A stretch of DNA of 23,043 bases from the IMG/VR virus record IMGVR_UViG_3300020169_000122, positions 1-23,043 of that record. The stretch is one strand, 5' to 3'. This document shows, in pieces, positions 14,939 to 18,912 of this stretch; within the stretch, counting starts at the first letter, position 1, and every line of letters begins with the position of its first letter. The position numbers and the translations under genes are program-made. The stretch comes from a virus. A model generated the notes under the pieces. The model saw only the letters and a list, made by a program, of their open reading frames with translations. It was not told the origin of the DNA and did not search any database.

Positions 14939-16939
14939 TTAGAAACTAGCGCTTTTAGCGAAGGAAGAACCTACTTTATCACTATCCATGTATACGTTTG
15001 AATCTTTTGCTAATAACCGTTCTAACAGGGCATTTGTCCTACTTTGTTCACTATTACCTGCGGATGTAGCCGAGTTTGTAATGTTAGGTGAAGCCATGAT
15101 ACTATCACCTTTAGCTGTAACTGCCATAGCACCGTAGCTATCTGTAATAGTAAATGGTCCTTTAGATGAAGGTGCAATACCATCCTGAACAGATTGAGCT
15201 ACCATAGCTGTACCTGCTCCTATAGCAGACATTAAACCTATAATACCAGCCGCAGCTAACGCAGGGCCAGCAAGTGGTCCTGCGAAAAAAGATGAAGCCG
15301 TAATATCTGCAATAGCTTTTATAATGGATAAAGTTGCTAACCCCGCTAAAACTCCTACTAAGGCTACAGCTGCTACTTTGGATTGAGCTAAAAATCCAAC
15401 TACAGAAGCAAACCCATCTATAATAGGAGACAATACAGTTCCTATATCACCTATAATACCTTGAATTTTTTCGAGTGAAGCTTGGAATTTTTCGGATGCA
15501 GATTGAGCTTGCATGGCTTGGTATGATTGTTCACCATATTGAGCTATAAAATCATCTTGAGCTAAATTGAGGTATTGTTGCTGCATTACCATATCCGCTA
15601 AATCATTACGAGACATGCCTAAAGCAGCTGCAGCGGCTTCTTGTTGGATTCTATTCCCAGTAGCAAATGTTTCAGTAAGGGCAGTATTTTCAGCTATTTC
15701 TTTTGATAAAGCAGCTGAATCGTTATTAAGAGCTGCTAATCTAGCTTTTTCTAAATTAATTTCTTTACCTAATAATAATTCTGCTTTAAGTTCGTTCTCA
15801 ATAGATGATTCAAACTGAAGTAAAGAAGCAGCAATTGCATCTACTTTTTCTAAGTTTAAACCTAAAGCTCGAGCTTCAGTAGCTGCTTCTGCTAATAGCT
15901 CAGGAGACATCCCTAACGATACTACAATAGATGCGGATGCTGTTGCAATATCATTTAGTACTGCTTTAGCACTGATTGCTGATTTATTTTGTTTGTTTAT
16001 AGCGTTAACAGTATCAACAGTATTTTCTAATACTGAGTTTGTGTCTTCGCTTTGTGTTCTAGCTAATAATGATAGTTGAGAGGCTTCTTTAGCACCAAAC
16101 CCTAACTGTTTAGTTAGAGTAGTCATAGTAACTAAAGTATCACCACTAAATGTTGAAAGTAAACCTGTAGTTTCTACTAAATCTGTAAGGGATTTATTTA
16201 AATCCTTAGAATTAATAAATAATTTTTCTGAATTGGTAGCAGATAATGCTAAGTTATTTTGTAGTTGGTAGGCATTGTTGTAACTAATACCTAAGTTTTT
16301 CTGTAGGTTAGCTATATTATCGCTACCAGCCAATGCTGCCTTAGCAATAGCTAAAAAAGCAGCTTCTCCTAATAAAGCTGTTTTTTGAGCTTTATTAAGT
16401 TCACCCCCTAATAATTTAGCTGATAAGCCTGATTTGTCAAGATTAGAAAGATATTCTTTAGCATTTTCAAGAATATTACCTGTAATACCTTTTTGAGCTA
16501 TTTGTTCAGTATTAATGTCATTAATAGCACCTAAAGTGTCTATTTGGGATTGGAAATAATCCCTTTGATTTTGTAGAGTTTCTTCGTTAAATATAGCTCC
16601 TGCCGCTTTAGCAGCATTGATTTTCCTTTCAAAAGTTGCTTTTTCTTTTTGAACTTTAGCAAGTTCTTTTTCTACTTCTTTAGCAACGTTTTGTCCTTTT
16701 TGAGCTTTTTCAAGTAACCCCTGTTGAACCTTTAATTGAGTATTAGAACCTTTAACCCCTTTTACTAAGTCATCCCCTAAGGATTTAACCACACCCCTGG
16801 CTTCTTCCTGAACCAGATTAAGATTATCTTTTAGTTCAACCTTAAGTGCATCCCCAACTCCTTTAAACCCACCTTCTAGGAGAATAAATTCCTCTCTAAG
16901 TTCTTGTATTTGTTTTTTTATTTCTTCGGGTGTAGCCAT
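14939..16939 (-). CDS. Tail tape measure protein
   Basis: The 666-residue protein is predicted to set tail length, at about 0.15 nm per residue giving a tail of roughly 100 nm. It begins with long Lys/Glu/Gln-rich coiled-coil helices (residues 1-150), continues with Ala/Leu/Asn/Ser-rich helices, and has a strongly hydrophobic stretch around 510-605 (VAALVGVLAGLATL-type, then AGPALAAAGIIGLMSAIGAG) that could insert into the host membrane during injection. The C-terminus carries VQDGIAPSSKGPFTITDSYG and ends LLAKDSNVYMDSDKVGSSF, an ending pattern familiar from tape measure proteins of marine myoviruses. It lies directly after the gp26-like/chaperone pair and before baseplate genes, which is the classic position. 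T4 gp29 plays this role and is of similar size (590 residues). Confidence 0.88.
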   Translation of the reverse strand: MATPEEIKKQIQELREEFILLEGGFKGVGDALKVELKDNLNLVQEEARGVVKSLGDDLVKGVKGSNTQLKVQQGLLEKAQKGQNVAKEVEKELAKVQKEKATFERKINAAKAAGAIFNEETLQNQRDYFQSQIDTLGAINDINTEQIAQKGITGNILENAKEYLSNLDKSGLSAKLLGGELNKAQKTALLGEAAFLAIAKAALAGSDNIANLQKNLGISYNNAYQLQNNLALSATNSEKLFINSKDLNKSLTDLVETTGLLSTFSGDTLVTMTTLTKQLGFGAKEASQLSLLARTQSEDTNSVLENTVDTVNAINKQNKSAISAKAVLNDIATASASIVVSLGMSPELLAEAATEARALGLNLEKVDAIAASLLQFESSIENELKAELLLGKEINLEKARLAALNNDSAALSKEIAENTALTETFATGNRIQQEAAAAALGMSRNDLADMVMQQQYLNLAQDDFIAQYGEQSYQAMQAQSASEKFQASLEKIQGIIGDIGTVLSPIIDGFASVVGFLAQSKVAAVALVGVLAGLATLSIIKAIADITASSFFAGPLAGPALAAAGIIGLMSAIGAGTAMVAQSVQDGIAPSSKGPFTITDSYGAMAVTAKGDSIMASPNITNSATSAGNSEQSRTNALLERLLAKDSNVYMDSDKVGSSFAKSASF

Positions 16940-16952
16940 AATATATCTATAT

Positions 16953-16965
16953 GTTATACATATTA
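16953..16965 (-). promoter_or_regulatory. Variant of the recurring upstream motif, before tape measure gene
   Basis: The minus strand reads TAATATGTATAAC, one base different from the TAATATTTATAAC copy seen before the coiled-coil gene, and it ends 13 bases before the ATG at 16939. It overlaps the 3' end of the chaperone-like frame. Weaker than the exact copies. Confidence 0.25.
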
Positions 16966-17256
16966 CTTATAACTAGTTTTATTACCAAATTTTGGGGTAG
17001 AGATTTTACCATCTTTACCTATTAAATTGCTAGTATTAGAAGATTTTTTAGATTCAGATGTTTGTTCTGCTTGTTTATCGTAATGTTCCTTTATCTTTTG
17101 ATAAGTAAACTTACGGAGCCAAAGTGGCATATTGTAAACATCGTTCCAACTATAACCACCTTGACCATAAAAACAAATTTCATGGATTTGAGTTAAAAAG
17201 TTAACTCTATACTGCTTAGCCGAGGTCGACGTCAGGCCAAAAAAAGCTAATCCCAA
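16963..17256 (-). CDS. Small tail-assembly-chaperone-like frame, probably expressed by frameshift from the gp26-like gene
   Basis: The 97-residue frame carries QIHEICFYGQGGYSWNDVYNMPLWLRKFTYQKIKEHYDKQ, the pattern of small phage tail chaperones (short helix, a Gly-rich turn, a hydrophobic MPLWLRxFT helix), and then a Lys/Ser-rich tail. It starts inside the 3' end of the gp26-like gene and overlaps it by 41 bases. The only possible start is a TTG at 17256; there is no ATG and no Shine-Dalgarno sequence. The overlap contains seven T on the message (17245-17239) at which a shift to +1 or -2 joins the two frames in phase. Position between tube and tape measure genes is the classic position for frameshifted chaperone pairs (lambda G/GT, P2 E/E'). 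I read it as the extension part of a fusion product. It may also be translated separately at low level from TTG. Confidence 0.7.
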   Translation of the reverse strand: MGLAFFGLTSTSAKQYRVNFLTQIHEICFYGQGGYSWNDVYNMPLWLRKFTYQKIKEHYDKQAEQTSESKKSSNTSNLIGKDGKISTPKFGNKTSYK

Positions 17257-17950
17257 TTGGGATAGAGAGAGATTTTGTTGTTCCGGAGGGAAAAAAAGTT
17301 AAATCAACGTCAGGTTGGATTTTTTGAATATATTCCCTAAATGCTCTAGCATCTCGAGCTAAGAAAGCAGTATCCACAAACTCTCGAATAGTTTTTCTTT
17401 CTCTATCACCATTGATAGACGTAATCATATACTTCAACCTAGTTGTTAGTTCTGGGGAACCCTCTACGTTAATTTTCTTTAAACCCTCTAACTCTTGAGA
17501 GACTTTAGTTTCGTCCCCCTGAGTTAATAGTTTAAATGAGATTTCATTACTAGAGGTAGGGAGAGTGAATTGAAATTCATTTAATCCCTTAGTATATAGT
17601 GATTCATCTAATGGTTTATTTTCTAATAAAGATAAGTCTACTGATTCTTCTTTACCGTTGTATGTAAACTTATAATCAGCTCCATACCCTAAAATACGAG
17701 CAGCTATCATAATAGCATTTTTATCCCCAATAAGTAAATCATTATAATTAATATCAGATACTATTAAGGATTTTAGGAGTTTATCCAATACACTCCCATT
17801 AGCAATATAATTCTGGTTGGTGAGGATATCTTCCTCCTTAGCAGTCATATACTTAATTTCAATTGTACCCGAGGAAAGTAGGTTATCACTAGGATAAATT
17901 AAACCTTTAGAAGGTAATTCGATTGTTTCTGTTGGTAATTTAAAACTCAT
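17216..17950 (-). CDS. gp26-like baseplate hub / tail assembly protein
   Basis: The 244-residue protein matches the T4 gp26-type baseplate family. It opens with LPTETIELPSKGLIYPSDNLLSSGTIEIKYMTAKEEDILTNQNYI, the most recognisable block. A middle beta-rich domain follows (FQFTLPTSSNEISFKLLTQGDETKV). A helix then ends near EYIQKIQPDVDLTFFP, and the last residues are SIPIGISFFWPDVDLG, where PIGxxFFWPD is the familiar end of the family. The Pro-Asp-Val-Asp pair occurs twice (around PDVDLTFFP and again at the end). It precedes the tape measure and overlaps the chaperone-like frame by 41 bases, arguing that it acts in tail assembly rather than only as a finished baseplate part. The spacing to the upstream 101-residue gene is 66 bases. 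Confidence 0.82.
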   Translation of the reverse strand: MSFKLPTETIELPSKGLIYPSDNLLSSGTIEIKYMTAKEEDILTNQNYIANGSVLDKLLKSLIVSDINYNDLLIGDKNAIMIAARILGYGADYKFTYNGKEESVDLSLLENKPLDESLYTKGLNEFQFTLPTSSNEISFKLLTQGDETKVSQELEGLKKINVEGSPELTTRLKYMITSINGDRERKTIREFVDTAFLARDARAFREYIQKIQPDVDLTFFPSGTTKSLSIPIGISFFWPDVDLG

Positions 17951-18016: not shown

Positions 18017-18322
18017 TTAGTATTGGCGAGACTGTTGTCTCTTTATATCAAGATCACCATAGATCTTACTTTCTAGTTTATCGACTCTGGAGTCGGTATG
18101 TCGAACAACGTTTTGTTCTACTTCATCAATTCGAGAATATAACTCTTGTCGAGTCTTCTCAAGTTGTCTATAAATATCTTCAAACGCGTGGTTTGATGAA
18201 ATATTTAAGTTATCAATGTCCTTCTTAAGGACTTTTGTCGTCATGTAATTCACGGACGTAATCGCAACCATAGCCAGCGCTATAACAGCAAGTACACCCA
18301 AAATAAATGATGTTATTTCCAT
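18017..18322 (-). CDS. Small membrane-anchored coiled-coil protein, unknown function
   Basis: The 101-residue protein opens with a membrane segment at about residues 4-26 (ITSFILGVLAVIALAMVAITSVNYM). It is followed by a charged region that reads as a long parallel coiled coil (FEDIYRQLEKTRQELYSRIDEVEQNVVRHTDSRVDKLESKI). There is no signal-peptidase site, so it would be an inner-membrane protein with most of its length on one side. It lies between the terminator after the tube gene and the gp26-like gene, so it has its own upstream region (AACATTTATATAC before the ATG). I cannot assign a function. Possibilities include a lysis regulator, a superinfection-exclusion factor or a membrane-associated assembly factor; the position alone does not decide. 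Confidence 0.7.
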   Translation of the reverse strand: MEITSFILGVLAVIALAMVAITSVNYMTTKVLKKDIDNLNISSNHAFEDIYRQLEKTRQELYSRIDEVEQNVVRHTDSRVDKLESKIYGDLDIKRQQSRQY

Positions 18323-18423: not shown

Positions 18424-18912
18424 TTAGAAGTTTAATACAGCGTAATCGATAGCAACAGTCATTGAGATTTCGATAGCAGTATCAACAGTATCCCAGTTAT
18501 AATCTCCAAATGAAGCATCTTTAATGAATGCACCTTTTAGTACCCATTCAGATACTACATCTCCTACAGGACCTAATACGTTAAATCTAAGATCTTTCTT
18601 ATAGAAATCTGAGTAACCATCTCTACCAGTAACTGATTCGTGGTGTAAACGAACCCATTCCATTACTGATTGTGCACCTGAAGGTGTGATAGGATCAAAT
18701 AATGTAAATGATACATCGTTCCATACGGACTTACCTTTTACCTTACGTTGTACATTCATATGGTTAAGAGTCACTTCACCTTGTGCCAAAGACACTGCAC
18801 CTACACCTTTTACCATGTATGAAGGAACACCGTCCATATACATGATAAACCTATTTGCTTGTTTTGGTTCAAATGCTGTGAAGAAAACTTCGTTTGTATC
18901 TAATACTGCCAT
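18424..18912 (-). CDS. Tail tube protein (gp19-like)
   Basis: The 162-residue protein is the usual size of T4 gp19 (163). It forms the inner tube. Recognisable blocks are FTAFEPKQANRFIMYMDGVPSYMVKGVGA, then LNHMNVQRKVKGKSVWNDVSFTLFDPITPSGAQSVMEW, then RDGYSDFYKKDLRFNVLGPVGDVVSEWVLKGAFIKDASFGDYNWD. This order is very typical of myovirus tubes. It follows the sheath gene after 47 bases and is closed by a strong terminator. A copy of the recurring TATTTATAAC motif lies 21 bases before its ATG. It is produced at very high copy in such phages, which fits its having a promoter-like motif and a terminator of its own. Confidence 0.93.
   Translation of the reverse strand: MAVLDTNEVFFTAFEPKQANRFIMYMDGVPSYMVKGVGAVSLAQGEVTLNHMNVQRKVKGKSVWNDVSFTLFDPITPSGAQSVMEWVRLHHESVTGRDGYSDFYKKDLRFNVLGPVGDVVSEWVLKGAFIKDASFGDYNWDTVDTAIEISMTVAIDYAVLNF

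What the first reader, a model, noticed from the sequence alone, without database searches (positions are those of the whole stretch)
17216..17256. Probable programmed ribosomal frameshift joining the gp26-like protein to a tail chaperone frame
Seen: the chaperone-like frame (16963-17256) begins inside the gp26-like gene, has only a TTG start at 17256, has no Shine-Dalgarno sequence, and overlaps 41 bases. The message strand of the overlap has seven T in a row (17245-17239, AGC TTT TTT TGG in the gp26 frame). A +1 or -2 slip moves into the chaperone frame, which then reads GGC CTG ACG. Known: tail genes between tube and tape measure often use frameshifting to make a short and a long chaperone (lambda G/GT, P2 E/E', Mu with -2). 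Inference: gp26 and this frame form such a pair in a T4-like phage. A second T7 run lies at 17297-17291.
Basis: partly seen in the sequence, partly recalled or inferred. Interest (0 to 1): 0.72.

Follow-up and report, generated by a model that had tools for sequence, protein, structure and literature searches.

The report
Frameshifted tail chaperone in T4-related phage
A phage tail gene very probably makes two proteins, a short one and a longer one, because some ribosomes slip forward by one base at a conserved TTTTTTTGGCCTGA; such frameshifts are common for phage tail chaperones, but here it is an unusual +1 slip at an ordinary codon, kept in more than 80 related viruses.

Summary
The gene at 17950-17216 (-) is a T4 gp26/gp51-type tail assembly chaperone (phrog_150). 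Near its end it reads TTT TTT TGG CCT GAC. The +1 frame then encodes a 92-residue C-terminal domain ending 23 bases before the next gene, probably the tape measure.

In 83 of 83 related loci that domain lies in the +1 frame. Across 81 homologues (median 63% identity) the only codons without synonymous variation are the two slip Phe codons (TTT) and the CCT after them. The TTG start is a by-product of an Ile-Gly pair and is not conserved. Two relatives that have an ATG for the second frame lack the slip sequence. Variants that break the T-run argue against a -2 slip and against polymerase slippage, leaving +1 slippage on UUU-pyrimidine.

Chaperone frameshifting is a known kind, including in T4-like phages (Vladimirov et al. 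2022, cited in PMC12846349; text not held). Less documented, as far as I could find: the +1 sense-codon site, and the same gene pair using -1 in cyanophages and some proteobacterial phages, separate ATGs in two contigs, and duplicated genes 26/51 in T4. No wet evidence exists.

The parts
17216..17950 (-). TAC-N, short form of the tail assembly chaperone (T4 gp26 equivalent), 244 aa, stop TAA 17218-17216
   Evidence: ATG ORF; phrog_150 E=1.6e-8; 80+ homologues
17231..17245 (-). +1 slip region TTTTTTTGGCCTGAC (0-frame TTT TTT TGG CCT GAC); slip on a UUU-pyrimidine at the first or second Phe codon
   Evidence: invariant or near-invariant at DNA level in 81 homologues
16963..17241 (-). TAC-C, C-terminal domain read in the +1 frame after the slip (FGLTSTSAK...SYK, 92 aa plus stop); with the first 236 residues of the N part it gives TAC-NC, 328 aa (T4 gp51 equivalent)
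   Evidence: open +1 frame; +1 in 83/83 loci
17254..17256 (-).
17291..17297 (-). Second, upstream T7 run: not the slip site in homologues
   Evidence: codons vary; +1 stops downstream of it in several homologues
14939..16939 (-). Probable tape measure gene (666 aa), 23 bases downstream of the TAC-C stop
   Evidence: position; tape measure annotated at the same place in immuto; no profile hit of its own
18424..18912 (-). Tail tube protein (gp19-like), upstream neighbour
   Evidence: phrog_4542 E=3.9e-19

Best explanation
[quoted passage not shown] Most ribosomes read to the stop at 17218-17216 and give the 244-residue TAC-N (T4 gp26 equivalent). A fraction slips one base forward when tRNA-Phe in the P site re-pairs from UUU to the overlapping UUU (UUC in some relatives) in UUU-YUU-UGG-CCU-GAC, and continues into a helical domain to give the 328-residue TAC-NC (T4 gp51 equivalent). 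By analogy with lambda G/GT, the N part would coat the tape measure protein while the extra domain of the few long molecules recruits tail tube subunits; both would leave before the tail is finished. Shown: sequence architecture, conservation, +1 frame relation, family membership. Inferred: that slippage occurs, its efficiency, and the chaperone roles.
For: Frame: the C-domain is in the +1 frame in 83/83 loci, with the GG[YF]...Y.MP motif in all, and in more remote Rhodothermus RM378, Thornevirus LIS04 and Streptococcus GXN1. Selection: of 163 testable codon columns only F236 TTT (81/81), F237 TTT (73/73) and P239 CCT (81/81) lack synonymous variation; D240 is GAC 75/77 while GAC is 19% of Asp codons elsewhere. 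The third base of F236 is not explained by +1 coding, since the +1 codon covering it is not read in either slip model. Start: 59/82 homologues have no ATG ahead of the domain, the ATGs that exist are scattered, and 65/82 have no ATG/GTG/TTG between slip and the conserved His. Natural control: L119 and L124 have an ATG 5-8 nt after the stop in another frame, and the slip sequence is absent (TTC TTG TAT; TTC CTT TGG CCA). Direction: TTC TTT TGG (L109 clade), TTC TTT CGT (GXN1) and TTT CTA TTC (L004) fit +1 on UUU-Y but not -2. Family: phrog_150 covers T4 gp51 over 13-280 but gp26 and the frameshift 0-frame products only to about 235; fusion products match across clades by profile at 99%. Position directly upstream of the probable tape measure gene.
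Against: No ribosome profiling, mass spectrometry or reporter data. No recognised stimulator: no conserved Shine-Dalgarno-like element, no consensus RNA structure, and an A-site codon that is neither a stop nor very rare (UGG 10 per 1000, UUU 33 per 1000). Which of the two Phe codons slips cannot be resolved in the window. L119 and L124 suggest the domain may work as a separate protein in some phages. The direct profile match of the fusion family to T4 gp51 is weak (E=0.66), so that link is transitive through phrog_150.
Confidence: 0.93

Rival explanations
1. Two separate proteins: the second frame is translated independently from the TTG at 17256 or another start, perhaps by coupling to the end of the first gene.
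For: A TTG exists at 17256; the window's genes do without an obvious Shine-Dalgarno; L119 and L124 do have an independent ATG; some homologues have an ATG in the open +1 stretch.
Against: The TTG is a by-product of ATT GGN and is missing in many homologues; 6 of 82 have no ATG/GTG/TTG at all ahead of the domain and 59 no ATG. All 18 checked genes of the window start with ATG. The rival does not explain zero synonymous variation at the slip codons, nor the absence of the slip sequence just where an ATG exists.
Confidence: 0.04
2. -2 ribosomal frameshifting (as in phage Mu) at the T-run, giving one extra residue.
For: The net frame is the same as +1, and T7 would allow re-pairing in the window.
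Against: TTC TTT TGG (L109 clade), TTC TTT CGT (GXN1) and TTT CTA TTC (L004) cannot re-pair at -2 but keep the same frame relation.
Confidence: 0.05
3. Transcriptional (RNA polymerase) slippage on the T7 run makes a mixed mRNA population.
For: T-runs can promote polymerase slippage in AT-rich genomes; PMC3711429 quotes Tn with n>8.
Against: The run is only 7 and is broken in relatives that keep the frame relation (TTTCTTTGG, TTCTTTTGG, TTTCTATTC); ten other runs of at least 7 lie in the same window.
Confidence: 0.03
4. Sequencing or assembly error, or a decayed gene.
For: Homopolymer runs are error-prone in general.
Against: The same frame relation in 83 loci from many metagenomes and in isolate genomes; the domain is conserved.
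Confidence: 0.005

Closest known systems
T4-like tail assembly chaperones TAC-N/TAC-NC (T4 gp26/gp51; Vladimirov, Gautam & Davidson 2022, Virology 566:9-15, cited in PMC12846349; paper not held, content partly from memory)
   Same: Same protein family (phrog_150, PF12322); short form plus long form with an extra C-terminal domain; frameshift signals are reported there for TAC-N genes of T4-like phages.
   Different: T4 encodes the two forms by separate divergent genes; here one gene with a +1 slip. Whether that paper covers this clade or the +1 direction could not be checked.
lambda G/GT and its counterparts (-1; Xu et al. 2004; PMC5009743)
   Different: -1 at a heptamer in lambda; +1 on UUU-Y here; no sequence homology shown. 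The HK97 tail assembly chaperone 2ob9 is the PDB match with the best probability but E=0.85 is not significant.
Halorubrum myovirus HSTV-2 (+1 inferred) and Listeria phages PSA/A118/A500 (+1 at CCC-UGA) (PMC5009743)
   Same: +1 frameshift in phage tail genes.
   Different: The Listeria phages slip on a proline codon, next to a stop in the tail gene; here the slip is on Phe UUU with a sense codon in the A site. The HSTV-2 site was not compared.
prfB (RF2) +1 frameshift, CUU-UGA
   Same: P-site codon slips to UUU one base downstream; CTT-T variants in L050, L058 and immuto look alike.
   Different: prfB has a stop codon in the A site and a Shine-Dalgarno spur; neither is present here.
[quoted passage not shown]
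   Same: Short and long chaperone without frameshift, as in T4.
   Different: Separate paralogous genes; this locus uses one gene.

Membership tests
Phage tail assembly chaperone, G/GT type | Located between tail tube gene and tape measure gene | tested here: met
   Tube 18424-18912 (phrog_4542), one small ORF, chaperone, then a 666-aa ORF 23 bases downstream; tape measure annotated at that place in immuto
Phage tail assembly chaperone, G/GT type | Second frame overlaps the first and has no conserved start of its own | tested here: met
[quoted passage not shown]
Phage tail assembly chaperone, G/GT type | Short and fused protein both made, in an unequal ratio | not testable with these tools
   needs proteomics or a reporter
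Phage tail assembly chaperone, G/GT type | Binds tape measure protein; absent from the mature virion | not testable with these tools
Phage tail assembly chaperone, G/GT type | Fold of a known tail assembly chaperone | tested here: inconclusive
   HK97 chaperone 2ob9 has the best probability in the PDB (0.38) but E=0.85
T4 gp26/gp51 family (phrog_150 / PF12322) | Profile match of the first-frame protein | tested here: met
   window E=1.6e-8 to phrog_150 over residues 4-135; no Pfam hit for the window itself, but remote relatives pass PF12322
T4 gp26/gp51 family (phrog_150 / PF12322) | gp51-type C-terminal extension in the long form | tested here: inconclusive
   The domain aligns in register with the gp51 C-terminus but weakly (E=0.66); strong between frameshift clades (99%)
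prfB-type +1 frameshift | Stop codon in the A site and upstream Shine-Dalgarno spur | tested here: not met
   A-site codon is TTT/CTT or TGG; the glycine codon upstream varies GGG/GGA/GGT/GGC

The most novel reading that the evidence does not exclude
A large group of T4-related phages uses a +1 frameshift on an ordinary UUU-pyrimidine site with no stop or rare codon, Shine-Dalgarno element or RNA structure to stimulate it, which would imply an undescribed stimulator (for example the nascent peptide, or a property of the host's tRNA-Phe or ribosome). Within one homologous gene pair, evolution has moved between +1, -1, independent start and gene duplication.
Probability: 0.4. Interest if true: 0.65.

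Novelty: new variant of a known kind. Interest (0 to 1): 0.5.

Why it matters
It gives a strongly conserved, testable +1 frameshift at a sense codon in phages related to cultivated Flavobacterium phages. It adds to the published view that the T4 hub proteins gp26 and gp51 are the short and long tail chaperones. The same pair appears as a +1 fusion, a -1 fusion, separate ATG genes and duplicated genes, so the cost and benefit of frameshifting can be compared within one family. It also corrects annotation: the C-domain is annotated as a truncated gene in immuto and syn9, and the short cyanophage gp51 noted in PMC3037559 fits a -1 extension of gp26.

Tried and rejected
(1) The T7 run as evidence by itself: rejected, 11 runs against about 14 expected. 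(2) Missing Shine-Dalgarno as evidence: rejected, none is obvious in the 18 genes checked. (3) Downstream stimulatory RNA: windows starting 40-80 nt after the slip are more stable than shuffles (mean z about -1.6 to -1.8), but RNAalifold finds no common structure in 78 sequences; not adopted. (4) Upstream T7 run, and -2 slip: rejected by homologues. (6) Sequence search of solved structures: nothing relevant. (7) Two scripts crashed on an empty sequence list; corrected. (8) The key paper of Vladimirov et al. 2022 is not held. (9) Reports on immuto: nothing useful found.

Full report
OBSERVATION. On the minus strand, ORF 17950-17216 (244 aa, ATG) overlaps by 41 bases an ORF that the mechanical list starts at TTG 17256 and ends at 16963. 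The message reads ATT AGC TTT TTT TGG CCT GAC GTC GAC CTC GGC TAA in the first frame. The +1 frame is open from 17298 and encodes, after the run, FGLTSTSAKQYRVNFLTQIHEICFYGQGGYSWNDVYNMPLWLRKFTYQKIKEHYDKQ.... Runs of seven or more A or T are no commoner than chance in this 35% GC window (11 against about 14 expected), so only comparison can decide.

COMPARISON. A scan of IMG/VR with the first-frame protein gave 80 loci, to which Flavobacterium phage immuto, Microcystis phage Mel-JY01 and a huge phage were added. In all 83 the domain with GG[YF]...Y.MP lies in the +1 frame directly after the first gene. The 0-frame proteins of 81 of them have a median pairwise identity of 63%. The slip region is TTT-TTT-TGG-CCT-GAC in most, with TTT-CTT-TGG, TTT-CTT-TAC, TTT-TTT-TTC and TTT-CTA-TTC variants. 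I measured synonymous variation in 163 codon columns: the median ratio to expectation is 0.91, and only three columns have none, namely Phe236 (TTT 81/81), Phe237 (TTT 73/73) and Pro239 (CCT 81/81). Other conserved Phe columns use TTC 4-11 times. Asp240 is GAC in 75 of 77 although GAC makes up 19% of Asp codons. CCT and GAC are explained by coding in the +1 frame (CTG AC = Leu Thr). The third base of Phe236 is not, because the +1 codon covering it is not translated in either slip model; the slip itself is the best explanation.

START CODON. The TTG at -11 arises whenever Ile-Gly is written ATT GGN; it is missing in many homologues. Of 82 loci, 59 have no ATG between the +1-frame opening and the conserved domain, and where ATG occurs its position is scattered. 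In L078, L080, L083 and L085 a +1-frame stop lies within 11 bases upstream of the run, and in L016, L022 and L034 just over 20 bases upstream, which also excludes the upstream T7 run as the site there. Two relatives provide a natural control: L119 and L124 have the domain in another frame with its own ATG 5 and 8 bases after the stop, and their sequence at the slip position is TTC TTG TAT and TTC CTT TGG CCA.

DIRECTION. More distant relatives keep +1: RM378 (TTT TTT TGG), LIS04 (TTT TTT AGT), GXN1 (TTC TTT CGT) and the L109 clade (TTC TTT TGG). The common denominator is a UUU codon followed by a pyrimidine, so that tRNA-Phe can re-pair one base downstream. A -2 slip cannot re-pair in TTC TTT TGG, TTC TTT CGT or TTT CTA TTC. 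Polymerase slippage is unlikely where the run is broken. In the window itself the first or the second Phe codon could be the slipping one; the protein is the same. A -1 slip in the window would meet a stop after four codons.

SAME GENE PAIR, OTHER SOLUTIONS. In Stenotrophomonas RAS14, Agrobacterium Atu_ph07 and Pseudomonas Paride the domain is in the -1 frame after T TTT TTT or T TTT TTC. In cyanophage syn9 and in 80 of 80 related viral contigs the first gene carries T TTT TTC two codons before its stop, and in 79 the domain follows in the -1 frame, the last contig ending too early. The syn9 record annotates it as gp51 from an internal ATG, and PMC3037559 had noted that cyanophage gp51 is only about 20% of the usual length. 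In T4, genes 26 and 51 are divergent. Both belong to phrog_150, gp26 matching positions 14-235 and gp51 13-280, and they match each other over about 190 residues (probability 98.8%). So gp26 corresponds to the short and gp51 to the long form.

FUNCTION. PMC5009743 describes lambda G/GT: G binds the tape measure protein and T the major tail protein; that review names T4 as the exception. PMC3004832 lists gp26 and gp51 as hub assembly chaperones, gp51 being absent from the finished particle. The gene here sits directly upstream of the probable tape measure gene. The AlphaFold2 model of the short form is confident (pLDDT 90.5), matches predicted 'baseplate hub' proteins of other phages, and has the HK97 tail assembly chaperone as its best-probability PDB match, but at E=0.85, which is not significant. 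The chaperone role is therefore inferred from family and position.

KNOWN OR NEW. Frameshifting of tail chaperones is classic. For T4-like phages, Vladimirov, Gautam and Davidson (Virology 2022) identified the genes; PMC12846349 cites that work for poly-T slip signals in T4-like TAC-N genes. I could not read it; from memory its abstract reports frameshifting in several T4-like groups and separate genes 26 and 51 in T4. PMC2147016 proposed a comparable two-gene form for phage 0305phi8-36. Hence this is not a new kind. The +1 direction on a sense UUU-Y site, its conservation in a large environmental clade related to Flavobacterium phages, and the independent ATG in L119/L124 are what I found no report of, within ten searches of an open-access library.

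LIMITS. No experiment. No stimulator was identified. Homologues are related, so counts are not independent events; the comparison with other codons of the same genes is the control for that.

Noticed in passing
L143:679-1592 (syn9) and L144-L223: Cyanophage-type T4-like gp26 genes all carry a T TTT TTC heptamer just before the stop, and gp51 lies in the -1 frame (79 of 80 contigs; one is cut off). gp51 in syn9 is annotated from an internal ATG.
   Followed up: yes
L119:1650-1800 and L124:1650-1800: Relatives in which the C-terminal domain has its own ATG just after the stop of the first gene, and the slip sequence is absent.
   Followed up: yes
L089 (RAS14), L090 (Atu_ph07), L091 (Paride), L092 (huge phage): Same gene pair with the second domain in the -1 frame after U UUU UUU/UUC or a longer T run; annotated as hypothetical pieces or not at all.
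   Followed up: partly
L088:5803-7229 (T4 genes 26 and 51): gp26 and gp51 are paralogues; gp51 carries an additional C-terminal part of about 45 residues that resembles the frameshift-encoded domain.
   Followed up: partly
window 17105-17205 (40-140 nt downstream of the slip): RNA in this stretch is more stable than shuffles in 27 homologues (mean z about -1.6 to -1.8 for windows starting at 40-80 nt), but no common structure was found.
   Followed up: partly
window, 18 genes checked: No obvious Shine-Dalgarno sequence upstream of any of these genes; upstream regions are A/T-rich, as is usual in Bacteroidota.
   Followed up: no
window 18017-18322 (-): 101-aa ORF between tail tube and chaperone genes with weak coiled-coil matches; immuto has no annotated gene at this place.
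   Followed up: no
window 17303-17314 and 17225-17236: Short near-repeat CCTGACGTTGAT / CCTGACGTCGAC near each of the two T7 runs, where Pro-Asp-Val-Asp occurs twice; possibly chance.
   Followed up: no
L002:3839-3949 (immuto): The Flavobacterium phage immuto record annotates only a 36-aa hypothetical ORF inside the +1-frame domain, missing the fusion.
   Followed up: yes
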